Assembly: GCF_001651805.1 (NCBI RefSeq)
Contig: NZ_CP015839.1
Location: forward strand, 3,534,001-3,598,000
DNA: 64,000 nucleotides
Direction: 5' to 3'
DNA from: Marinobacterium aestuarii
GTDB taxonomy: Bacteria > Pseudomonadota > Gammaproteobacteria > Pseudomonadales > Balneatricaceae
The notes below the pieces were generated by a model. The model was given only the letters and a program-made list of their open reading frames with translations. It was not told the origin of the DNA and did not search any database. Below, piece by piece: positions 1,206 to 45,433 of the stretch (position 1 is the stretch's first letter; each line of letters opens with the position of its first letter). The position numbers and the translations under genes were made by a program.

Positions 1206-4061
1206 CTATTCCGAACTCCCGTGTTGATCCACGAAGTCCCACAGGGCCAATGGGTCTAGCGGGCGGCTGTAGTAATAACCCTGGATGTGGTGACAGCCGT
1301 GCTTGAGCAGAAAGTCGAGCTGCTCGCTGGTTTCCACACCTTCGGCCAGCACCCCAATGCCCAGACTGCGGCACATCACGATAATCGCCTTGACGATCGC
1401 CTCGTCATCCCTGTCCTTGCCTATGTCGCGTACAAAGCTCTGATCTATTTTCAGGGTGTTGATGGGCAAGCGTTTAAGGTAACTCAGTGAGGAGTAACCG
1501 GTGCCGAAATCATCCATCGACAGGCTGATACCCCGCTCGCGCAATTGAATCAGCTTGCTGATGGTCAGCTCCGGCTGGCGAATCACGAAGCTTTCAGTGA
1601 TTTCCAGATCAAGCAGGGTCGGCGGCAAACCTGAATGCGCCAGCGCAGCGTCTACCTCCTGCAACAGACCCTCGTGGGCTATTTGCGGACCGGCAAGATT
1701 CACCCCCAGGCGAATCGGAATCATGCCCTCACCTTGCCACTGCGCCATTTGCCGACAGGCCTCGTTCAACACCCAGCGCCCCAGCGGCACAATCAGCCCC
1801 ATTTCCTCGGCCAGCGGAATAAAGCGCCCGGGGGACACAGCACCAAACTCGGGATGCTGCCAGCGCACCAGCGCCTCCATGCCACAGACAAGGCCACTGA
1901 GGGCATCCACCTTGGGTTGATACTGCAGGGTAAAATCGCCCCTATCCGTTGCCCGACGCAACTCGTTGCCCAGCGCAAAGCGCTCTACCCGCACACTGCC
2001 CTGTGCCGCGTGGTACACACGGTAGCGCCCCGAGCCCTGTTCCTTGGCCTCGATCATTGCCAGGTCTGCACTTTTAACCAGGTCGGTGGCGTCCTGGCCA
2101 TGCTCCGGGAACAGGCTGATACCAATGCTGAGAGTGCTGTAAATTTCGTAGCCTCCCAGATGAAACGGCTCGACAAAAGCACCAATCAGGCGCTGGGCCA
2201 AACAACTGGCCGCCGACGCTATGTCCCGTTCGCACTCCAGCATGAGTACAAACTCATCCGCTCCCAGGCGTGCCAGATGATGCTCTTCAACAGTGATTTC
2301 GCCGATACGCAGCGCCACCGCCTCGAGCAGCTGATCGCCAACATGGTGCCCAAGGCTGTCATTAACGCCTTTGAAATCGTCAATATCGCAACAGAGCATG
2401 GCCAGCTCCCGACCGGATTGCGCCGCACTTTTCAACCGCTGTACCAGCGCTTCGAAAAACAGCTGGCGGTTGGGCAGTCGGGTCAGCGGATCATGGTTGG
2501 CAAGCCAGTAGAGGCGGCTTTCAGCGTGGCGCCGCTCGGTCATGTCCAGCCCGATGGAGAGAATATAGGCATCGCGATCGCCTGCGTCGCGCAGCCGCGA
2601 ATGCTGCCACGAGAGGTGCAGCTCGCGCCCATCGTCGGCGACAAAGCGCGTATCCAGCTGCAACCGCGGATTGCGGCCCTCATAAAGCGACTGCAACTGC
2701 GCCTGTGCATCCTCGCCTTCTGCCAGCAGCCCGATATCCTCGAAGCGATAACCGGGCTGCAACGGCAGGGCAAGCCCCAGCAGACGACTGCCATGCTGGT
2801 TCATGGACTGAATAACCCCGGCGCGGCTTTGCGTCAGAATCACGGCCTCCGCTGTATCAAACAGACTGGTGACAAAATCACGCTCACGCTGCAGTGCCGC
2901 GCTGCGCCGCTCCAGATGCAGGGTGTGGTCAGCCACGGCGTCCTCCAGCTCATCCAGCCGACTGGCAAGCTCACCGGCGCTGTCCGCCAGCACATCCAGC
3001 TCGTCACTAAAGGCTCTGGAACCAAGACCTGCCGGCAATTGCTGCAACTCCTGCTTGCGCAGGCCGCCGACCCTGGCCAGTTGTGGCAGCTGTTCGGCCA
3101 GGCGCCCAAGATAGCCCAGCGGGCGGCGCAACATCAGCGCCAGCAGTACCAGGACCAGCACAATGCCGCTCAGCGCGACGCTCATATCGAACAGGCGCCG
3201 GTTATGCATGGCCTCCAGCGGTGCCGTGATATCACTGATAATCAGCCAGTAGGCGCGACTGTCGGATATATCCTGAACCAGGGGTGACAACAACAGCTCC
3301 AGCTCGCGCCCATCCACCGTCAGCCTAAAGCTGGAGCCGGGGCTTTGCAGCCGCGCCGTCAGGTTCATATGACTGAGCATTGACTCATAGCGGTCACGGT
3401 TGGTAAGCGCCATCAGACGCGGCGCCAAGCCATCACCGCGCCCTGAGGGCATCAACAGCAAGCCGATATCCACGGTGCTCTGGCGATGGTACTCCAGCAC
3501 CACATCATGCATCAGGCTGCCCACCAGCAGGACCGCGGTCGTGCCACCCTCGAACATAACCGGAATGGCCAGGTAACGCAGACAGTTATTCTGACATGAA
3601 ATACTCTGTTGCGGCTGTTCAAGCTCAAGCACCCGCCGGACAATCTCCGGTTTGATAGCCAGTGACTCCCCCCAGGCCTGCTGCAATTGACCATCGGCGC
3701 TGTACAGCTGCACCAGATCCACCACCCCCAGCATCAGGATGTTCGTCGCTCGACTCTCCATGTCCTGGGCCTGTTGCGACCAGGGGTCATCGGTCGGTGC
3801 AGCCAGGGCGTCATTTCGCGGCAACAGCATAACCTGGGCTATATCCAGCAGACGCCTGTAACTCGTATCCACCGTGGCATTAAGCATGTCGACCTGCTGC
3901 TGACTGCGCGCACTGAGCTCGGCCGCCAGCTCCCGCTGCTGACGCGAATAGGACAGGGTTTGAGCCAGACCATAGACCAGGGACAACGTCATCAGCAGAA
4001 TCAGCATCAGTTTCCATTTAAGACTGATAAAGGTACTGCTTCTGCTCGCCCTGGTACTCAT
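1206..4061 (-). CDS. membrane-bound sensor GGDEF/EAL protein
   Basis: The start is the ATG at 4061, which has an AGGGGG ribosome-binding site in the 8-bp gap after the porin gene. An in-frame extension upstream lies inside that gene and is rejected. The 951-residue product has a transmembrane helix (about 13-35), a periplasmic sensor region to about 290, a second helix (293-312), HAMP and coiled coil, a PAS domain (395-510), GGDEF (515-680) and EAL (690-945). The GGDEF signature reads GADEF, so cyclase activity is doubtful. The EAL domain keeps MEALVRW, DDFGTGYSSL, KID and AEGVET, so c-di-GMP hydrolysis is the likelier output. It is the last gene of a three-gene operon with a porin and a small binding protein, whose ligand may feed the periplasmic sensor. 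Confidence 0.9.
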   Translation of the reverse strand: MSTRASRSSTFISLKWKLMLILLMTLSLVYGLAQTLSYSRQQRELAAELSARSQQQVDMLNATVDTSYRRLLDIAQVMLLPRNDALAAPTDDPWSQQAQDMESRATNILMLGVVDLVQLYSADGQLQQAWGESLAIKPEIVRRVLELEQPQQSISCQNNCLRYLAIPVMFEGGTTAVLLVGSLMHDVVLEYHRQSTVDIGLLLMPSGRGDGLAPRLMALTNRDRYESMLSHMNLTARLQSPGSSFRLTVDGRELELLLSPLVQDISDSRAYWLIISDITAPLEAMHNRRLFDMSVALSGIVLVLVLLALMLRRPLGYLGRLAEQLPQLARVGGLRKQELQQLPAGLGSRAFSDELDVLADSAGELASRLDELEDAVADHTLHLERRSAALQRERDFVTSLFDTAEAVILTQSRAGVIQSMNQHGSRLLGLALPLQPGYRFEDIGLLAEGEDAQAQLQSLYEGRNPRLQLDTRFVADDGRELHLSWQHSRLRDAGDRDAYILSIGLDMTERRHAESRLYWLANHDPLTRLPNRQLFFEALVQRLKSAAQSGRELAMLCCDIDDFKGVNDSLGHHVGDQLLEAVALRIGEITVEEHHLARLGADEFVLMLECERDIASAASCLAQRLIGAFVEPFHLGGYEIYSTLSIGISLFPEHGQDATDLVKSADLAMIEAKEQGSGRYRVYHAAQGSVRVERFALGNELRRATDRGDFTLQYQPKVDALSGLVCGMEALVRWQHPEFGAVSPGRFIPLAEEMGLIVPLGRWVLNEACRQMAQWQGEGMIPIRLGVNLAGPQIAHEGLLQEVDAALAHSGLPPTLLDLEITESFVIRQPELTISKLIQLRERGISLSMDDFGTGYSSLSYLKRLPINTLKIDQSFVRDIGKDRDDEAIVKAIIVMCRSLGIGVLAEGVETSEQLDFLLKHGCHHIQGYYYSRPLDPLALWDFVDQHGSSE

Positions 4062-5799: not shown

Positions 5800-5875
5800 T
5801 GGCGTCCCATAGGGGGTTCGAACCCCTGTTACCGCCGTGAAAGGGCGGTGTCCTGGACCACTAGACGAATGGGAC
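5800..5875 (-). tRNA. tRNA-Glu(TTC), copy 1
   Basis: A 76-nt tRNA with encoded CCA. The anticodon loop CCTTTCACG carries TTC, the T-loop is GGTTCGAACC, and the acceptor stem pairs GTCCCAT with ATGGGAC. It is the last gene of a Glu-Gly-Glu-Gly-Glu cluster transcribed leftwards. Confidence 0.98.
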
Positions 5876-5898
5876 TGACTGAATCCCCGGACGAGGAT

Positions 5899-5974
<76 letters not shown>

Positions 5975-6008
5975 TTATTCTTCTTCCAACCGAGCGGCTG
6001 TCAGAAAG

Positions 6009-6084
6009 TGGCGTCCCATAGGGGGTTCGAACCCCTGTTACCGCCGTGAAAGGGCGGTGTCCTGGACCACTAGACGAATGGGAC
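6009..6084 (-). tRNA. tRNA-Glu(TTC), copy 2
   Basis: A 76-nt tRNA identical by eye to copy 1. The spacer before it, 6085-6125, contains the small hairpins CCTCTTGCGAGG and CCTCTTTCGAGG, which recur almost unchanged in the second cluster. Confidence 0.98.
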
Positions 6085-6125
6085 TGATAAAACTCCTCTT
6101 GCGAGGAATGTCCTCTTTCGAGGAT

Positions 6126-6201
<76 letters not shown>

Positions 6202-6251
6202 TGAACGCTTGCGCGCTTGCCGTATTTCCGCAGGCTGTGCCTGGCATGAAA

Positions 6252-6327
6252 TGGCGTCCCATAGGGGGTTCGAACCCCTGTTACCGCCGTGAAAGGGCGG
6301 TGTCCTGGACCACTAGACGAATGGGAC
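6252..6327 (-). tRNA. tRNA-Glu(TTC), copy 3
   Basis: The first, promoter-proximal gene of the first cluster: 76 nt with encoded CCA and the same sequence as the other tRNA-Glu copies. Its promoter is at 6358-6386. Confidence 0.98.
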
Positions 6328-6401: not shown

Positions 6402-8069
6402 TTATTGGCGCGCTACGCCGAACCCGGCTTCGCTTCGCGGCGGCAGCTTCCCGTGCCAGCCCACCACACAGTTGCGCCCAGCGTCCTTGGCCGCATAGAG
6501 CGCCTGGTCAGCGCATTCAATAAACTGATCGGCGTGCAGCAGTTCAAAATCTTCACTGCAGGCGATACCGGCACTTAGCGTGCAAGCGAAGGTTTCACCT
6601 TCATGCTCGAACTCAAGCGCCGCGAAGGCTTCGCGCAGCCAGTTGCATTGGCGTTCCGCCCCCTCTTCCTGACAACTGGGCAAAATGGCAAAAAACTCCT
6701 CGCCGCCGTAACGCCCGACCTTGTCCGTGCCCCGCAAACGGGTTTTCAGCAAATGCGCCAGAGCCCGAATCACGGTATCGCCCCGGGCATGGCCATAGGT
6801 ATCGTTCACCTGTTTGAAGTGATCGATATCCAGCATGACCACACTGAAGCAGCTTTCCTCCCGTGTCGCGCGCAGGCACTCGGCAGCAAGCGCTTCCTTG
6901 ATATGCACATGATTCAACAGCCCGGTCAGACCATCGCAGGCGCGCAGGTTGGCAAGACGACGCATACGCTCTGCCCGCACTCGAACGACCGACACCAGAT
7001 ACTGCTCGGAGATGGGCTTGGTAATGAAATCGTCCCCGCCCCGATTCAGCGCGTGCAACTGCCGCTCCCGGTTAATTTCCGCCGACAAATAAATGATCGG
7101 CAAGCCGGTCCATTCGTCGTAGTAGCGCAGCGCCGCGGCCAGCTCGACACCGCTATAGCCCGGCATGTGGATATCGAGCAACAACAGGTCCGGCCGAAAA
7201 TCCTCCAGCCGACGCAGCAGGTGGGTCGGGTCAGGCTCGATCTCTGCCCGCATTCCCGCATTGAGAAGCGCCTGCTGATAACTGAGCGACAACATCTCGT
7301 CATCGTCCACAATCAGAATGCGATAGGGTATTTCCGTATGATCCCCCACCAGCGAATCGACCTTTTCAACCAGTTGCATCACATTCAGTGGCCGCACGAA
7401 AAATGCCGCCGCGCCCAATCTTGCCGCTTCAAGTCGGGACTCAAAGTCATCCTGCTGTGAAATGAACACCAAGGGCACACCGGCAAGAGACAGGCGTTGC
7501 AAAAGCGACTCTGGAAGCGTTACCCGCTCGGCATCCAGTATCAGCACACCCTGCGTGGGCTCGGGAAACACCAGCGCATCTTCCGCCGCCTGGAGCCCAT
7601 CCAGTGGTTTAACTGCAAAACCGTACTGACGCAGTGAGCGCAATAAATTCTGCTCACGGGTAACCGCGCCCATCAGCAGCCAGATCGTTGGCATAACGCC
7701 CTGGGACGGGGTCTCGAGCGTGCTGACCGGCGCGGCCAGATGCTCAGTCGAATTGAGCCAGCGCTCGCCCAGTGCCAGAACGTCCCGCACCAGCGCCTGA
7801 CGGGCGTCTCCCTCAAGCAACTGACCGCCACGGATTGCCTGCTCCAGCCGGCTGGCTTCAAGCCCCAGCGCCTCCTGCCCGAAAATGCCAGCGGAGCCCG
7901 CAATACGGTGCAGCCCCTGCTTCAGAGCATCAAAACGCTCAGTATCCAGACGCCCCTTCCCCCAGGCCAGCGCCAGTTCGCCGAGGTAGGCAACGGTCGC
8001 CGGCAGGCGCTCCAGATAGCGCTGACGCTGCAACTTTAACGTTTCTACTGCACGGTCTTTAGCCGTCAT
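6402..8069 (-). CDS. Hpt-REC-REC-GGDEF response regulator (diguanylate cyclase)
   Basis: A 555-residue cytoplasmic protein. Residues 15-110 resemble an Hpt domain (HRIAGSAGIFG, with the phosphorylatable His). A degenerate receiver follows (130-245), then a complete receiver (250-370: LIVDDDE, LLLLDIHMPG, TKPI) and a GGDEF domain (385-545) with the intact active-site motif YGGEEF and an RGTD I-site five residues upstream. It should therefore be an active, product-inhibited diguanylate cyclase controlled by phosphorylation. It is the last gene of the six-gene operon, and its ATG overlaps the CheY-like gene by 11 bp. The likely phosphodonors are the two sensor kinases upstream. Domain order is seen; the relay route is inferred. 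Confidence 0.92.
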   Translation of the reverse strand: MTAKDRAVETLKLQRQRYLERLPATVAYLGELALAWGKGRLDTERFDALKQGLHRIAGSAGIFGQEALGLEASRLEQAIRGGQLLEGDARQALVRDVLALGERWLNSTEHLAAPVSTLETPSQGVMPTIWLLMGAVTREQNLLRSLRQYGFAVKPLDGLQAAEDALVFPEPTQGVLILDAERVTLPESLLQRLSLAGVPLVFISQQDDFESRLEAARLGAAAFFVRPLNVMQLVEKVDSLVGDHTEIPYRILIVDDDEMLSLSYQQALLNAGMRAEIEPDPTHLLRRLEDFRPDLLLLDIHMPGYSGVELAAALRYYDEWTGLPIIYLSAEINRERQLHALNRGGDDFITKPISEQYLVSVVRVRAERMRRLANLRACDGLTGLLNHVHIKEALAAECLRATREESCFSVVMLDIDHFKQVNDTYGHARGDTVIRALAHLLKTRLRGTDKVGRYGGEEFFAILPSCQEEGAERQCNWLREAFAALEFEHEGETFACTLSAGIACSEDFELLHADQFIECADQALYAAKDAGRNCVVGWHGKLPPRSEAGFGVARQ

Positions 8070-16677: not shown

Positions 16678-19299
16678 TCAATGAACCTTGGACTCAGCGC
16701 ACAAGGCGCCACCGACAGTAGGCTCGAGCCACTCGCGGAGCAGCACCTCGGCGGGCTCAGGCCTTGCGAAAAAATATCCCTGCATACGATCACAGCCCCT
16801 TTGGCGCAAAAAGTCTGCCTGCGCCCGGGTCTCAACCCCCTCCGCCACAACCGACAGGTGCAGACTCTTGGCAATACCAAGAATCGCCTCGACGATGGCG
16901 GCGTCATTACTTCCTTCGGCTAGATCCTGTACGAAACTCTTGTCGATTTTGAGTTCGCACAGCGGCATCTGCTTGAGCCTGGCAAGATTGGAATAGCCGG
17001 TACCAAAATCATCAATCGAAAACTGCAAACCCAGGCGCGACAGCTCAGCCATGACACCCACAGCATCGCCCATTTCATCACCCAGCAGACTCTCGGTAAC
17101 TTCCAGTACAAGGTTCGCGGGGTTTGCACCTGTCTGCTGCAGGATATGCTTGACGCTTTGTACGAATCCCTCCTGCTGAAATTGCCTTAAACTGACGTTT
17201 ATCGACAGGGGCAGCACAGGGCCAGAGGCATTAACCCGTACGCTTAGCTTGCACACTTCGGCAAATATCCAGGCTCCCAGCTCAATAATCAGCCCGCACT
17301 CTTCGGCCACCGGGATAAACTGCACCGGCGGAATAAAACCACGTGTGGGATGACACCATCGTGTCAGCGCTTCAGCCGCAACCATGCGGCCATCACCGTT
17401 GACCTGTGACTGCAGGAATATAAACAGCTCACCGTGCATTAGCGCATGGCGCAGATCGCGTTCCAGATCCGCAAATTCCTGCACCTGCAGCTGCATACCC
17501 GCCTCGAAAAACGTGACTTCCCCCAGCCCTGCAGCCTTGCTGCGATAGAGCGCTATGTCCGCCTCGCGCAGCAAGTCTTCCGCCGTTTCCAGCCCCTTGG
17601 GCAACAGCGTAATGCCCATGGATGCCTGCAGGTGATGCTGATGACCGTCTATCTCAAACGGCTCACGCACTGCCAGTGCCAGCTTGCCCGCCAGGCGCCG
17701 AACCGTACGTGAGACATCAGGCGATATACTGGCGTCCAGATCCGGCAGCAATACCACAAACTCGTCCCCCCCCAGCCTTGCCACCGTATCCTGCTCGCGC
17801 ACCAGCGCTTCCAGCCGCCGCGACAGCACTTTCAATGCGGCATCGCCCACACTGTGCCCGAAGACATCATTGACACGCTTGAACTGATCCAGATCGAGAA
17901 AAATCAGCGCCGACACCCGACGATGACGGCGTCCGGATGCCAGTACCATCTCCAGCCGATCCAGCAGCAAGCGGCGATTTGGCAGCCCCGTCATAGGGTC
18001 AAAAAAGGCCATCTGGTGCAGCATGGCTTCACTTTCCCTGTGCTCGGTCACATCCTTGAGCACAGACACATAATGGGTAATAGTGCCCCGCGAGTCCCGC
18101 AGTACCGTTGAAGTCACTTCAGCCAGATAATCGCCGCCGCTCTTGCGTCGCAGCGTCAACTCGCCGTCAAAACCGCTGGATGAGAGCAATTCCTGACACC
18201 AGTTTTCCCAACCTTCCTCCCCTTCATCACTGCAATTCAGCTCCGACAGATGCCGCCCTACTATATCGGCACGCCCAAAACCTGTCTGGGCTTCAAAACA
18301 GTCGTTTATCTCCGTCACATGACCGCGCGCATCCAGAATTGCAATGGCGAGATTTGCCTGATTCATCCCGCAACTCAGTGTCCGCAGCCGATCGCGATCA
18401 CCGCGCAGCTGCAGGGCAATAGCCGTAATACTTGCTGCGACCGCTGCGACCTCATCGACAACAAGCTGCGAGAGCGCCCCCTGGCGATAATAGATATCGA
18501 TGCACCCCAGCATCTTGCCGGCACTGACCACCGGGTGCGACAGACTCGCCGAGAACCCCTGTGATACCAGCGCATCCCCATGCTGACGCCAGCTCGCACT
18601 GGTTGCGATGTCGTCGATCTGCACCGGCTCGGCCCGGCTGATCGCAAGGGATGCAGGCCCCGGCATATCGCCCGGCGTCATATTCTCGAAAGCTTCCAGG
18701 TAGCGATCAGAAAGCCCTGCTGTGGCACCGCAGCCTAGCCGATACCCATCATCTTGCAGCAGGAGAATACAGACAGCCGACTCAGGCAACAGAGACAAAA
18801 CACCGCGGGCCAATGACTGGAGTTGACCTGCCAGCGGCCTGGCTAGCGCTACTGGGTCCAGCAGCGAGGCGCGCAGCTGTTCCAGCCCGCGCCTGTGCCG
18901 CTCATCCGTCACATCGGTGAAAAACCACGCAAAGGCCTCCGGCGGCCTTTCGCTCTCGTGCAGAGGCTGACTCTGCAGATGCACCCAGCGCACAGCACCC
19001 GCGGTCGGATAAAAGAGAATTTCAATATCAAGAGGGTCCCCGCAGGATCGCGCCCTATCGATTTGATGCAGCTGCTGAGGGTCCGAGGCTGGACCCTCGA
19101 AATAGGATAGCGCCGCACGACGCAAGGCGTCCTGCGGCTGACAGCCGGACAAGGAGCAAAATGCCTCATTGACCCAGAGGGCCTCTCCCCGAGGCGAGAC
19201 GACCATGACTGCACAGGGCGCCAGTGACAATGCACGACAAAGTGAACTCGTTTCAGCATGCAGCAATTTGAACTCTCCCTGTAACCCCATCCCAGACAC
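16678..19299 (-). CDS. PAS-GAF-PAS-GGDEF-EAL protein
   Basis: An 873-residue soluble protein and first gene of the six-gene operon; the start is a GTG at 19299 or an ATG nine bases later. Order: PAS (20-135), GAF (150-300), PAS (310-425), GGDEF (430-600) and EAL (610-860). Both catalytic motifs are complete: RLGGDEFVVLL in the cyclase, and AEALTRW, IDDFGTGYSNL, LKIDKSF and AEGVETRAQ in the phosphodiesterase. It could make or degrade c-di-GMP depending on the PAS and GAF signals. It shares no receiver with the rest of the operon, so it probably works in parallel with the REC-GGDEF protein rather than downstream of the kinases. Its end overlaps the next gene. Confidence 0.92.
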   Translation of the reverse strand: MSGMGLQGEFKLLHAETSSLCRALSLAPCAVMVVSPRGEALWVNEAFCSLSGCQPQDALRRAALSYFEGPASDPQQLHQIDRARSCGDPLDIEILFYPTAGAVRWVHLQSQPLHESERPPEAFAWFFTDVTDERHRRGLEQLRASLLDPVALARPLAGQLQSLARGVLSLLPESAVCILLLQDDGYRLGCGATAGLSDRYLEAFENMTPGDMPGPASLAISRAEPVQIDDIATSASWRQHGDALVSQGFSASLSHPVVSAGKMLGCIDIYYRQGALSQLVVDEVAAVAASITAIALQLRGDRDRLRTLSCGMNQANLAIAILDARGHVTEINDCFEAQTGFGRADIVGRHLSELNCSDEGEEGWENWCQELLSSSGFDGELTLRRKSGGDYLAEVTSTVLRDSRGTITHYVSVLKDVTEHRESEAMLHQMAFFDPMTGLPNRRLLLDRLEMVLASGRRHRRVSALIFLDLDQFKRVNDVFGHSVGDAALKVLSRRLEALVREQDTVARLGGDEFVVLLPDLDASISPDVSRTVRRLAGKLALAVREPFEIDGHQHHLQASMGITLLPKGLETAEDLLREADIALYRSKAAGLGEVTFFEAGMQLQVQEFADLERDLRHALMHGELFIFLQSQVNGDGRMVAAEALTRWCHPTRGFIPPVQFIPVAEECGLIIELGAWIFAEVCKLSVRVNASGPVLPLSINVSLRQFQQEGFVQSVKHILQQTGANPANLVLEVTESLLGDEMGDAVGVMAELSRLGLQFSIDDFGTGYSNLARLKQMPLCELKIDKSFVQDLAEGSNDAAIVEAILGIAKSLHLSVVAEGVETRAQADFLRQRGCDRMQGYFFARPEPAEVLLREWLEPTVGGALCAESKVH

Positions 19300-19720: not shown

Positions 19721-19796
<76 letters not shown>

Positions 19797-19830
19797 TAAT
19801 TTTTCTGTCAGCCGATCAACTGTCAGAAAA

Positions 19831-19906
19831 TGGCGTCCCATAGGGGGTTCGAACCCCTGTTACCGCCGTGAAAGGGCGGTGTCCTGGACCACTAGACGAA
19901 TGGGAC
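19831..19906 (-). tRNA. tRNA-Glu(TTC), copy 4
   Basis: A 76-nt tRNA identical by eye to copies 1-3. The spacer downstream (TGTCAGCCGATCAACTGTCAG) resembles the one between tRNA-Gly copy 4 and tRNA-Glu copy 5. Confidence 0.98.
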
Positions 19907-19946
19907 TTACTAACACCTCTTGCGAGGCATACCCTCTTTCGAGGAT

Positions 19947-20022
<76 letters not shown>

Positions 20023-20055
20023 TAATTTCCCGCCAGCCGATCGACTGTCAGAAAA

Positions 20056-20131
20056 TGGCGTCCCATAGGGGGTTCGAACCCCTGTTACCGCCGTGAAAGG
20101 GCGGTGTCCTGGACCACTAGACGAATGGGAC
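20056..20131 (-). tRNA. tRNA-Glu(TTC), copy 5
   Basis: The promoter-proximal gene of the second cluster, 76 nt with encoded CCA. Its promoter is at 20166-20194. Confidence 0.98.
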
Positions 20132-41300: not shown

Positions 41301-42698
41301 ATGATGACCCTATCAACTGTCACAGAGGATCAGGGACGACACCTTGCATCAACGGGCACGGTCGCCCGCACAGCACTTTTTCTGGATATTTACGATAGTA
41401 ATCGCGCGCCCAGCCTCAACCTTAACCTTAATGGCTGGACGCTAGAGCGCGTGACCAATATCGACAGCGCCCGCGATTCCCTGCGCGAACATAACTACTA
41501 CGTCGGTCTGGTAAAGCTCGACTGGCCCTCCATCCAGGACCGGGATGAAATTGAAGATTTTTTCCACCAGGACCAGTACACCAACTGGATAGCCCTGACG
41601 ACGCCAGACGTCATGCGTGATCACGCCTTCAGGCGCATGTTGTTTGAAAACTTCTACGATTACTTCACCCTGCCGCTGGACCCAAACCAGAGTTATCTGC
41701 AGGCCACCCTGGGTCATGCCTATGGCATCAGCCGGCTGCGCAAGCTGGAAGACAAGCAGCTTTCCATGCTGGATGAATTTCACATGGTGGGGGCCAGCCC
41801 CGCCATCATGGAAATATTCAAGCAGATCCGCAAGGTCGCCACGGCCGAGGCGCCGGTGCTAATCACCGGTGAAAGTGGCACCGGCAAGGAGCTCATTGCC
41901 CGCGCCATTCACCAGCGTTCGTCACGCCGCAAGGGCCCCTTCATCGCCGTCAACTGCGGTTCGCTGCCCGACACCCTGGTGCACTCGGAGTTATTCGGTT
42001 ACGAAAAAGGCGCCTTTACCGGCGCCTACAAACGCAAAATTGGCCGCCTGGAAGCCGCCACCGAGGGCACCGTCTTTCTGGATGAGATCGGCGACCTGCC
42101 GCTCGACATGCAGGTGCACCTGCTGCGCTTTCTGCAGGAACAGACACTGGAACGCCTGGGCAGCAACGATAGCATCCATGTCAACGCACGGGTAATCGCC
42201 GCCACCAATATCGATCTTGAGCAGGCCGTTGAAGTCAGTAACTTTCGGGAGGACCTGTACTACCGGCTTAATGTACTCACGGTAAAGGTGCCGCCACTGC
42301 GCGAGCGCAACGGCGATATCGAACTGCTGGCACGGTTTTTCTTTCAGAAATTTCGCAATGAACAGGGCTGCCATGTGCGCGGCTTTACCCAGCAGGCGCT
42401 GTCCGCCCTCAATGCCTATGAATGGCCCGGCAATGTGCGCGAACTGATCAACCGTATCCGCCGCGCCATGGTCATGAGCGACAACCGCCTGGTGACACCG
42501 GCCGACCTGGGGCTGGACGACAGCGTCTGCAACAGCGGCCAGCAAATCACGCTGGAAGATGCACGCAACCGCGCAGAAACTCAGGCCATTCGGCAAAACC
42601 TGGAGCTGAGTCACAACAACGTATCCAAGGCGGCCCGCATGCTCGGCGTCTCCCGCGTCACCCTCTATCGCCTGATGGAAAAATATCAGTTGCGATAA
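41301..42698 (+). CDS. VpsR-like sigma-54 enhancer-binding activator
   Basis: A 465-residue activator. Residues 20-145 form a degenerate receiver like that of VpsR (TALFLDIYDSNRAPS, then VKLDWPS); the acidic pocket is incomplete. The AAA+ domain has Walker A GESGTGKE (190-197), an intact GAFTGA loop (237-242), Walker B TVFLDEIGD and the arginine finger region; a Fis-type helix-turn-helix closes the protein (SHNNVSKAARMLGVSRVTLYRLMEKY). VpsR of Vibrio binds c-di-GMP. The intact GAFTGA means this protein should contact sigma-54. Likely targets are the promoter at 49116-49131 and possibly the one at 42913. It is divergent from gspAB. Confidence 0.9.
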   Translation: MMTLSTVTEDQGRHLASTGTVARTALFLDIYDSNRAPSLNLNLNGWTLERVTNIDSARDSLREHNYYVGLVKLDWPSIQDRDEIEDFFHQDQYTNWIALTTPDVMRDHAFRRMLFENFYDYFTLPLDPNQSYLQATLGHAYGISRLRKLEDKQLSMLDEFHMVGASPAIMEIFKQIRKVATAEAPVLITGESGTGKELIARAIHQRSSRRKGPFIAVNCGSLPDTLVHSELFGYEKGAFTGAYKRKIGRLEAATEGTVFLDEIGDLPLDMQVHLLRFLQEQTLERLGSNDSIHVNARVIAATNIDLEQAVEVSNFREDLYYRLNVLTVKVPPLRERNGDIELLARFFFQKFRNEQGCHVRGFTQQALSALNAYEWPGNVRELINRIRRAMVMSDNRLVTPADLGLDDSVCNSGQQITLEDARNRAETQAIRQNLELSHNNVSKAARMLGVSRVTLYRLMEKYQLR

Positions 42699-43340: not shown

Positions 43341-43828
43341 GCCTATCCTCACTTGAGCGCTTCCTTGCCAAACCATGCCCCTGATTCCCCTTCGCGACTC
43401 TGCGCCATCACTCCCGTGATCAGGCCCAGGAGCTCTCTCCCAGAAAATCAAAAACTCAAAACCTGTGCCGGAACCGCGAACTGTTTCACGTACCTTACAG
43501 CCCGCGTAACCATAATCACTATTTGTCTCCCCTTGGCAACGGATACTCACAAAATCGATCAAATTTGAGACATTACCCTGCGCCTATATTCCACATCTGT
43601 ATAAATAACACTCGATTCAGCATGTTATAGTTCTTACCCATATTACGGAGCCCGTTAATCGCTCCGAAAACGTATCAAATTTTTAACAATCGCCAGAAAA
43701 TGGCGGACAGTACTTTTAACAGGGATGCTCGGATGTGCGTAAATGGAACACAGAAAATGTGGCTACCACATGCCGAAAAAATATTTCACCCACGGGAAAA
43801 CAGTACCGCGGCAACAGATTTATATTGA
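43341..43828. other. non-coding stretch upstream of the riboswitch
   Basis: No supported gene is seen. A 73-codon frame begins at 43743 but runs through the riboswitch aptamer and is rejected. The promoter for the secreted-protein gene must lie here; TATATT and TATAAA occur near 43588 and 43600 without a good -35, so none is called. Confidence 0.5.
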
Positions 43829-43998
43829 AAAGATCCTCTCCCGACAAAGGCAAAGCCTGAGTAATCAGGCGGCGCAAAGTTACGGGTCCTTGTTTGTGTT
43901 TTCAAATGCGAATCAGGATCGCCGGACCGCCGAAGGAGAGAACCACTTACGGATTGGCCGCTAGAGGATCTTTGCTGAATTTTTAACTTTCAGGAGAG
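43829..43998 (+). promoter_or_regulatory. class I c-di-GMP (GEMM-I) riboswitch candidate
   Basis: Aptamer 43836-43940. Seen: closing helix P1, CTCTCC (43836-43841) with GGAGAG (43935-43940); GGCAAA (43849-43854); P2, GCCTGA-GTAA-TCAGGC, a perfect stem with a GNRA loop (43855-43870); GGCGCAAAG (43871-43879), equivalent to the conserved GACGCAAAG; P3, GGTCCT (43885-43890) with AGGATC (43915-43920); and GCCGGACCGCCGA at the 3' side. This is the conserved layout of class I c-di-GMP riboswitches, including the residues expected at the two ligand guanine contacts and the stacked adenine. The P1 5' strand is also complementary to the ribosome-binding site GGAGAG (43993-43998), and AAAGATCCTCT (43829-43839) to AGAGGATCTTT (43963-43973). 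Switching between these pairings would control the secreted-protein gene at 44003. Confidence 0.85.
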
Positions 43999-44002
43999 AT
44001 CT

Positions 44003-45433
44003 ATGCGCCTTTCCAGGCTTCTGTTTACTAAGCTGTGGCTTAGTAAATCAAAACAAAATCAGCGTTTACTCAACGCTACTCACCGATGCAATCATAGTGC
44101 CCTGGGCGGCATTCGCACTAAGGCAACAGCGAACGTTGCTCGGCGCCGATTGCTGTGGACCCCGCTGACATTAGCGACCATGGCTCTGATGCTCACCAGT
44201 CCTGTACAGGCGGGCAAGCCCACAACGAAGGGCAAGCAGGACACAACGGGGGCGACTTATACGCCGCTGAGCCTCACAGTAGAGGACTACTATTTCCGCT
44301 ACGGCCCAAGACCAGAAAATTGCTTGGGTGAAGACGATGAATTGGACTGGAAAGCGATCGGCGGTCTGAAGCCAGGTGAAAGCTTCACGTTCACTCCACA
44401 ATACCCCGGCTGCCAGAGCCACCCGGCTGCAATCACGGTCAACCTCTCCTGGGAGGGTTCCGAACTCGTCTTGTCCAGCGCAGCGCCGGATGCAGACATG
44501 CAGAGCGAGGATCCGGGCCAAAAAGGCAGGGAAATTATCGCTCCCTCGGTGGCCAACCGGGCACAGCTGTGCATGTTCCCCACGTACAGCTCGAACGACG
44601 AGTTTTACAGCGTAACCGTAACCAATGTTGGCACGTCCAACGCCAACAACATCGTGCTAGACGGTCGTAGCGATAATGACTGGGCCATCAAATTTTACAA
44701 TCGTTGCATGAATGCCGATGCCGACAATGACGGCTGGAACGACAGCCTCGAACACTCCATTTCAACGCTGCTGTACTCGGTTGGTTATGTCGATGGCGTC
44801 TACCAGCCTTACATCCTCTGGGGCAGCAACTATCTGAAAGCCAAAGCTGATACCAGTGCAGCGGATGACGAAGTCGACAGCTCTCCCGTCGACTTCAATG
44901 ACGACGGAGTAATAAACAACCTCGATGTCGAAGAGATCAGCTGGTATCTCGGCGAAGGAAACGGCATCCCCCAAAGCCAGATCAGCCCTAACCCCAGCAA
45001 TCCTGGCTATCTGTGGACCAACGCCCGGGAATGGCGCCGCTACGATGTGGACGGTGATGGCTATGTCGGGCAGTCCGACATCGATATCGTCTTGACACTG
45101 GTGGGACGCCCAATGCCAATGAGTGAGGACGTCATCGTGCCGACTGGACGAGTGATGGAACCGGAAGGCGGCAGCGTTCCCAAGGGCACCTATTATCAGA
45201 TCAAAGGTCACGTCTGGGACAACGCCGCCGTAACAAAGGTCGAGTATCTGGTTGATGGACGAGTTCTGTGCTCCGCTACCGACCCGGTACCCAGCTTCGG
45301 CTACACCTCTGCGTTCCATACCTGCTGGTGGGACGTTCCCAAACGACAGGGTTTATATGAACTCTCGATCAGGGTCTATGACGCGGCGGGAAATGTATCG
45401 ACCAGTGACGGACTTGTTGTCTCGGCAAACTGA
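44003..45433 (+). CDS. secreted protein with dockerin-like repeats and Ig-like domain
   Basis: A 476-residue exported protein, ATG with AGGAGAG upstream. The signal peptide is unusually long: the hydrophobic core is at about 50-70 (LLWTPLTLATMALMLTSPVQA) behind a basic N-region of some 48 residues. The mature part holds a beta-rich region (75-235), calcium-binding EF-hand/dockerin-type loops (DADNDGWND; DFNDDGVINNLDVEE; DVDGDGYVGQSDID) and a C-terminal Ig-like module (GTYYQIKGHVWDNAAVTKVEYLVDG). No catalytic motif was recognised. Its place inside the gsp locus suggests it is exported by this type II system and calcium-stabilised. Expression is probably governed by the c-di-GMP riboswitch just upstream; a terminator follows. 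Confidence 0.85.
   Translation: MRLSRLLFTKLWLSKSKQNQRLLNATHRCNHSALGGIRTKATANVARRRLLWTPLTLATMALMLTSPVQAGKPTTKGKQDTTGATYTPLSLTVEDYYFRYGPRPENCLGEDDELDWKAIGGLKPGESFTFTPQYPGCQSHPAAITVNLSWEGSELVLSSAAPDADMQSEDPGQKGREIIAPSVANRAQLCMFPTYSSNDEFYSVTVTNVGTSNANNIVLDGRSDNDWAIKFYNRCMNADADNDGWNDSLEHSISTLLYSVGYVDGVYQPYILWGSNYLKAKADTSAADDEVDSSPVDFNDDGVINNLDVEEISWYLGEGNGIPQSQISPNPSNPGYLWTNAREWRRYDVDGDGYVGQSDIDIVLTLVGRPMPMSEDVIVPTGRVMEPEGGSVPKGTYYQIKGHVWDNAAVTKVEYLVDGRVLCSATDPVPSFGYTSAFHTCWWDVPKRQGLYELSIRVYDAAGNVSTSDGLVVSAN

What the first reader, a model, noticed from the sequence alone, without database searches (positions are those of the whole stretch)
43829..43998. Class I c-di-GMP riboswitch with built-in competition for the ribosome-binding site
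All helices of a GEMM-I aptamer can be drawn: P1 CTCTCC/GGAGAG, P2 with perfect stem and GTAA loop, GCAAAG, P3 GGTCCT/AGGATC, and the GCCGG...CCGCCGA 3' side. The 5' strand of P1 is perfectly complementary to two further sites: the downstream gene's Shine-Dalgarno GGAGAG (43993-43998), identical to the P1 3' strand, and, as AAAGATCCTCT, to 43963-43973 over 11 bp. Simplest reading: ligand-stabilised P1 frees the ribosome-binding site, a translational ON switch for a secreted protein in a T2SS locus.
Basis: partly seen in the sequence, partly recalled or inferred. Interest (0 to 1): 0.85.

Follow-up and report, generated by a model that had tools for sequence, protein, structure and literature searches.

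The report
c-di-GMP riboswitch, likely translational OFF
A leader RNA in a bacterium related to Marinobacterium matches the c-di-GMP-sensing riboswitch family and is predicted to hide the ribosome-binding site of a likely secreted protein when the signal is high; the same layout recurs in relatives, mostly before genes for protease-like proteins.

The parts
43840..43935 (+). class I c-di-GMP aptamer (Rfam match)
   Evidence: RF03167 62.5 bits; RF01051 56.3 bits at 43839-43934
43836..43841 (+). P1 5' strand CTCTCC; pairs with 43935-43940
   Evidence: 6 of 6 pairs; 96.5% of 288 cells paired in 48 selected copies, covariation score reached by 0 of 500 shuffles
43935..43940 (+). P1 3' strand GGAGAG
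43855..43870 (+). P2 hairpin with GTAA tetraloop
43849..43849 (+). G20 equivalent, ligand contact (Vc2 numbering)
   Evidence: read from the sequence, tabulated; contact residues G20/A47/C92 from PMC4744006
43876..43876 (+). A47 equivalent; RF03167 consensus has G here
43930..43930 (+). C92 equivalent
43829..43839 (+). antisequestor 5' strand AAAGATCCTCT; overlaps P1 by 4 nt
   Evidence: 11 bp with 43963-43973
43963..43973 (+). antisequestor 3' strand AGAGGATCTTT, shared with the SD hairpin
   Evidence: 90.5% of 528 cells paired in 48 selected copies
43967..44001 (+). SD-sequestering hairpin: 43967-43973 with 43995-44001 and 43975-43979 with 43989-43993 (12 bp, one G.G mismatch)
   Evidence: fold -16.2 kcal/mol, Z -4.67; pairs listed
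43993..43998 (+). Shine-Dalgarno GGAGAG
44003..45433 (+). controlled gene, 476 aa; weak dockerin-like and Ig-like matches, just under Pfam's cut-offs; likely secreted
41301..42698 (+). upstream neighbour: sigma54 activator with VpsR domain

Best explanation
Window 43829-44002 holds an RNA that matches the class I c-di-GMP riboswitch aptamer, followed by conserved, mutually overlapping pairings that would act as a translational OFF switch for the dockerin-like gene at 44003. Inferred steps: as the RNA is made, without ligand, 43829-43839 likely pairs with 43963-43973 (antisequestor), which breaks P1 and leaves the later-made Shine-Dalgarno strand without its partner, so the gene is translated. 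With c-di-GMP bound, P1 (43836-43841 with 43935-43940) would hold four bases of the antisequestor; 43967-43979 would then be free to fold onto 43989-44001 and bury the Shine-Dalgarno. Shown directly: the aptamer match, the complementarities, their conservation and covariation in relatives, and their overlap. Inferred: ligand identity, sign and co-transcriptional timing.
For: Aptamer; G20/A47/C92 in the window and in 97 of 108 family copies. Antisequestor: matches of 9 nt or more in 40 of 108 unselected copies against 0.51 expected; 90.5% of cells paired in the 48 selected copies, 3 pairs changed on both sides, covariation score reached by 0 of 500 shuffles. Exclusivity: it takes 3-5 bases of the P1 5' strand in 48 of 48 selected copies; in L080 (reverse copy) and L097 more pairs lie inside P1 than outside it. 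SD hairpin: mean Z -3.75, 44 of 48 below -1.5, mean SD openness 0.10. Energetics: before the SD strand exists the antisequestor beats P1 in 48 of 48 (median -6.9 kcal/mol; window -5.5); with the leader complete to the ATG it is lower in 37 of 48 (median -2.4), the window being one of the 11 where P1 is lower, by 2.2. With P1 formed, adding the outer part of the antisequestor costs a median 5.6 kcal/mol relative to the best P1 state. The genome has 33 GGDEF-domain matches.
Against: No binding or expression data. Equilibrium folding of the window gives a closed SD with or without ligand: a ligand bonus leaves openness at 0.17 in one transcript and raises it from 0.04 to 0.17 in the other, the wrong direction. 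The model needs the antisequestor to be trapped during transcription. In the window's antisequestor state SD openness is 0.50-0.74 for four transcript ends but 0.01 and 0.09 for two others. Across the family the SD core is at least 3/4 paired in the antisequestor state in 21 of 48 copies and at most 1/4 paired in 16 of 48. The 48 copies were chosen by the downstream motif and an ATG, so searches are conditional on that; they come from 23 of 45 genomes, many look like paralogues, and shuffles do not remove relatedness. Weaker covariation measures are less clear: the number of pairs changed on both sides was reached by 169 of 500 shuffles for P1 and 19 of 500 for the antisequestor, and sliding the antisequestor by +2 gives more double changes (10 cells against 8). 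No promoter was found on the gene's strand just upstream. A class I switch in Bacillus thuringiensis binds c-di-GMP without changing expression (PMC11218506, abstract), so binding alone would not prove control.
Confidence: 0.7

Rival explanations
1. Translational ON switch: without ligand the P1 5' strand pairs with the SD; with ligand P1 forms and frees the SD.
For: CTCTCC is fully complementary to GGAGAG at 43993-43998. In the transcript 43820-44005 this state is the minimum, -61.0 against -60.2 for P1 plus SD hairpin, and a ligand bonus there raises SD openness slightly, 0.04 to 0.17. It beats the P1 state in 15 of 48 copies.
Against: With the five other transcripts folded to the ATG or beyond it is 3.0-7.6 kcal/mol worse than P1 plus SD hairpin. 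It is 6 bp or more in 23 of 48 copies only. In the P1 state the SD is not free (at least 3 of 4 core bases paired in 42 of 48). It does not explain the conserved pairing of 43829-43839 with 43963-43973.
Confidence: 0.12
2. ON switch by stacking: ligand-stabilised P1 is extended by the outer seven pairs of the antisequestor (43829-43835 with 43967-43973), and this coaxial helix pulls the downstream strand off the SD.
For: The two helices can be drawn together: the outer seven pairs do not overlap P1, and this state has an open SD (0.50-0.74) for four of six transcript ends.
Against: Costs a median 5.6 kcal/mol relative to the best P1 state and is within 0.5 kcal/mol of it in 4 of 48; window +7.7. 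In 9 of 48 copies only 3-5 antisequestor pairs lie outside P1 while 3-5 lie inside it.
Confidence: 0.1
3. The aptamer is real but senses something other than c-di-GMP (the Rfam GGC variant).
For: RF03167 is the best-scoring model and is above its cut-off.
Against: The RF03167 consensus has G at position 47; the window and all 108 family copies have A. All three c-di-GMP contacts are canonical in the window.
Confidence: 0.05

Closest known systems
c-di-GMP-I (GEMM-I) riboswitch, RF01051; Vibrio cholerae Vc1/Vc2
   Same: P1-P2-P3 architecture, GNRA loop, G20/A47/C92 contacts; upstream of a gene for a likely secreted protein, as Vc1 is upstream of gbpA (PMC4744006, PMC6366702, passages; that GbpA is secreted is recalled).
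   Different: The platform GATCCTCTC...GAGGATCTTTC...SD was found only in the window's own family in what I sampled: 0 of 25 assessed copies from other families of the order have a pairing of 8 Watson-Crick pairs or more, and an exact flank-plus-aptamer pattern was found in 1 of 369 class genomes, the own one (no other genome of the own family was in that sample).
Clostridioides difficile class I riboswitch before PPEP-1 (CD2830)
   Same: Class I OFF switch controlling a secreted metalloprotease whose substrates include a collagen-binding surface protein, CD2831 (PMC11477304, passages). Here 27 of 46 scanned downstream proteins match Peptidase_M11, and a gene for a SpaA-fold protein lies next to the dockerin-like gene in the window.
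   Different: That switch acts on transcription; this one is predicted to act on translation. The proteases are of another family (recalled). The full-window Rfam scan showed no class II c-di-GMP riboswitch.
c-di-GMP-I-GGC, RF03167
   Same: Highest model score.
   Different: Lacks the G at position 47 seen in that model's consensus. That the three letters name positions 20, 47 and 92 is recalled from Weinberg et al. 2017, which was not held.

Membership tests
c-di-GMP-I riboswitch (RF01051) | covariance-model score above gathering score | tested here: met
   56.3 bits against 35
c-di-GMP-I riboswitch (RF01051) | ligand contacts G20, A47, C92 | tested here: met
   residues named in PMC4744006
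c-di-GMP-I riboswitch (RF01051) | P1 conserved by covariation in relatives | tested here: met
   96.5% of cells paired, covariation score reached by 0 of 500 shuffles; but the count of pairs changed on both sides (2) was reached by 169 of 500. P2 and P3 covariation was not counted separately
c-di-GMP-I riboswitch (RF01051) | binds c-di-GMP | not testable with these tools
   needs in-line probing or SHAPE
c-di-GMP-I-GGC (RF03167) | score above gathering score | tested here: met
   62.5 against 59
c-di-GMP-I-GGC (RF03167) | G at the position equivalent to A47 | tested here: not met
   A at 43876; model consensus G; A in 108 of 108 family copies
3',3'-cGAMP GEMM riboswitch | A at position 20 (recalled; G20A mutant named in PMC7288161) | tested here: not met
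   G at 43849
translational OFF riboswitch | SD-sequestering hairpin sharing a strand with an antisequestor | tested here: met
   by complementarity, folding and conservation
translational OFF riboswitch | antisequestor overlaps an aptamer helix | tested here: met
   3-5 nt overlap in 48 of 48 selected copies
translational OFF riboswitch | SD accessibility depends on ligand | tested here: inconclusive
   equilibrium model of the window: SD closed with or without ligand bonus

The most novel reading that the evidence does not exclude
Marinobacterium and kin run a dispersal regulon made of one duplicated RNA module: c-di-GMP class I OFF switches copied in front of secreted M11-type metalloproteases, dockerin-like proteins and small exported peptides. 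When c-di-GMP falls, the cell would release proteases that trim its own surface adhesins, such as the neighbouring SpaA-fold protein. This would be an independent evolution of the C. difficile PPEP-1 logic in a Gram-negative. In a sister genus the same strand-exchange module was rewired to a terminator and its pocket changed to U92, perhaps to sense another cyclic dinucleotide.
Probability: 0.3. Interest if true: 0.65.

Novelty: new member of a known kind. Interest (0 to 1): 0.45.

Why it matters
It gives a compact c-di-GMP switch whose competing strands can each be tested by single reporter changes, and it turns round the predicted sign. The 48 aligned copies with the same layout, most before likely secreted proteins, point to an RNA-controlled exoprotein regulon in a group for which my one literature search found no riboswitch study (two papers hold both words, neither on this by title). 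It also shows that an over-threshold hit to a specificity-variant Rfam model need not carry the variant nucleotide.

Full report
OBSERVATION. Rfam finds the aptamer at 43840-43935 as RF03167, 62.5 bits against a cut-off of 59, and as RF01051, 56.3 bits against 35. The genome search found one other copy, at 4766096, with another kind of leader.

WHICH VARIANT. The consensus printed by cmscan for RF03167 reads GACGCGAA at the J2/3 stretch, where the window reads GGCGCAAA. The window thus has A at the position equivalent to A47 of Vc2. G20, A47 and C92 are the Vc2 ligand contacts (PMC4744006, passages), and the window has all three. Of the 108 copies listed for the family (45 of 116 genomes), one search scored 97 as G-A-C, 8 as G-A-U and 2 as A-A-C at positions 20-47-92; the last, L079, was misread by that script and by eye has C at 20. 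A separate check found the A47 motif in 108 of 108 and the G47 motif in none. So the top-scoring model's name is not the right label, and c-di-GMP is the expected ligand. Numbering was carried over from recalled knowledge of Vc2.

HOMOLOGUES. The nearest named relatives of the downstream protein are Marinobacterium (best 74% identity, M. aestuariivivens, M. mangrovicola). In M. mangrovicola (L034) a regulator that resembles the window's VpsR-domain protein by eye, the switch and the dockerin-like gene lie in the same order.

ANTISEQUESTOR. The strand upstream of and overlapping P1 (GAAAGATCCTCT in the alignment consensus) has a complement downstream. Without selecting copies, a contiguous Watson-Crick match of 9 nt or more is found in 40 of 108 and of 8 nt or more in 51 of 108, against 0.51 and 2.33 in shuffles; the test on the upstream side gave 1 of 108 at 8 nt or more. 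I then took the 48 copies (23 genomes) with a downstream motif G(A/G)GG(A/G)TC and an ATG 50-90 nt after the aptamer; 52 copies have such an ATG, so 4 lack the motif (L005, L072, L107 and one of L100), and 56 have no such ATG. On the alignment of these 48, P1 is paired in 96.5% of cells and the antisequestor in 90.5%. Both exceed all 500 shuffles in covariation score, and sliding by one column drops pairing to 49-54%. Less clear: the number of pairs changed on both sides is reached by 169 of 500 shuffles for P1 and 19 of 500 for the antisequestor, and a +2 slide of the antisequestor has more double changes. The shuffles do not remove relatedness. The antisequestor uses 3 (24 copies), 4 (19) or 5 (5) bases of the P1 5' strand, so full P1 and full antisequestor exclude each other.

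SIGN. P1 plus SD hairpin closes the SD (at least 3 of 4 core bases paired in 42 of 48). Direct pairing of the P1 strand with the SD also closes it (openness 0 in the window). Two states can open it: the antisequestor, which lacks P1, and P1 extended by the outer antisequestor pairs, which costs a median 5.6 kcal/mol over the best P1 state. Ligand binding stabilises P1, so ligand should mean OFF. Before the SD arm is transcribed the antisequestor is better than P1 in 48 of 48 (median -6.9 kcal/mol). With the leader complete to the ATG it is better in 37 of 48 (median -2.4); the window is among the other 11, by 2.2. Results against: in the antisequestor state the SD core is at least 3/4 paired to other bases in 21 of 48; in the window its openness ranges from 0.01 to 0.74 with the transcript end; and the equilibrium model of the window keeps the SD closed whatever the ligand bonus, with a small change in the wrong direction in one transcript. 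For the window the model therefore needs co-transcriptional trapping, which was not simulated.

RANGE AND REGULON. In the order-level sample 43 of 293 genomes had a hit, 37 of them outside the window's family. I looked at 27 loci, one for each of 27 of these 37 genomes; 2 could not be placed and none of the other 25 has a matching strand of 8 Watson-Crick pairs or more. An exact flank-plus-aptamer pattern, which many copies of the family itself would also miss, was found in 1 of 369 class-level genomes, the own one. Downstream of the 48 copies are, by reading the translations (some cut by the fetched stretch), about 34 large metalloprotease-like proteins, 6 dockerin-like proteins and 8 proteins of 90-115 aa. 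Of the 46 scanned (two short cut ones left out) 27 match Peptidase_M11 and 28 match Big_9 or cadherin-type repeats at E 1e-3 or better. Three genomes carry three switch-gene units in a row, about 7 kb apart. The window has only the first unit; the one match of the own genome to the protease covers its C-terminal repeats only (residues 666-865 of 871).

COMPARISON. Class I c-di-GMP switches may act on the ribosome site in general (PMC6366702, passage), and a class I OFF switch controls the secreted metalloprotease PPEP-1 in C. difficile (PMC11477304, passages). The window is a new member of that kind with a platform that I found only in its own family. All papers cited were seen as passages, PMC11218506 as abstract and outline.

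Noticed in passing
L020, L027, L030, L032, L067, L076, L078, L101 (family copies): Eight aptamers have U at position 92, seven from one genus (g7). The gene downstream of L067 is an HDOD-domain protein, with similar 422-423 aa proteins after L020, L027 and L076. Five (L027, L030, L067, L076, L078) have a CGCTCAGA/TCTGAGCG hairpin whose 5' arm can pair with the GAGGATCT strand; a T run follows clearly in L027, L076 and L078 only. The module may have been rewired to transcription and another ligand.
   Followed up: partly
G000:C1:4766096-4766170 (L113): Second aptamer in the own genome, 333 nt before a gene for a likely secreted protein with collagen-like GXY repeats coded by near-identical DNA repeats; its leader lacks the window's platform.
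   Followed up: partly
window 41301-42698: VpsR-domain sigma54 activator upstream of the switch, with a similar gene (by eye) in the same place in M. mangrovicola and L117; VpsR binds c-di-GMP in V. cholerae (PMC12564702, passage), so two c-di-GMP receptors may sit side by side.
   Followed up: no
L116, L117, L118: Rows of three switch-gene units with oppositely oriented genes between them, one resembling the window's SpaA-fold protein by eye.
   Followed up: partly
L028, L100 (copy G055:C475:1320-1406): Two copies scored A at position 20, the signature recalled for cGAMP-sensing GEMM RNAs.
   Followed up: no
Rfam RF03167: All 36 family hits above its cut-off have A47, so the cut-off does not separate the variant from canonical aptamers in this clade.
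   Followed up: yes
window 5803-6327 and 19724-20131: Two clusters of tRNA genes on the minus strand (5 and 4 genes) with the same pair of scores, about 13.8 kb apart, suggesting a duplicated array.
   Followed up: no
window 2028-2501, 6471-6938, 17527-18009: Three GGDEF domains within the window, of 33 matches in the genome.
   Followed up: no
L006, L012, L016, L019, L021, L022, L037 (genus g10): Copies keep the upstream GATCCTCT flank but showed no downstream partner strand of 8 pairs or more and no nearby start codon; their role is unexplained.
   Followed up: no
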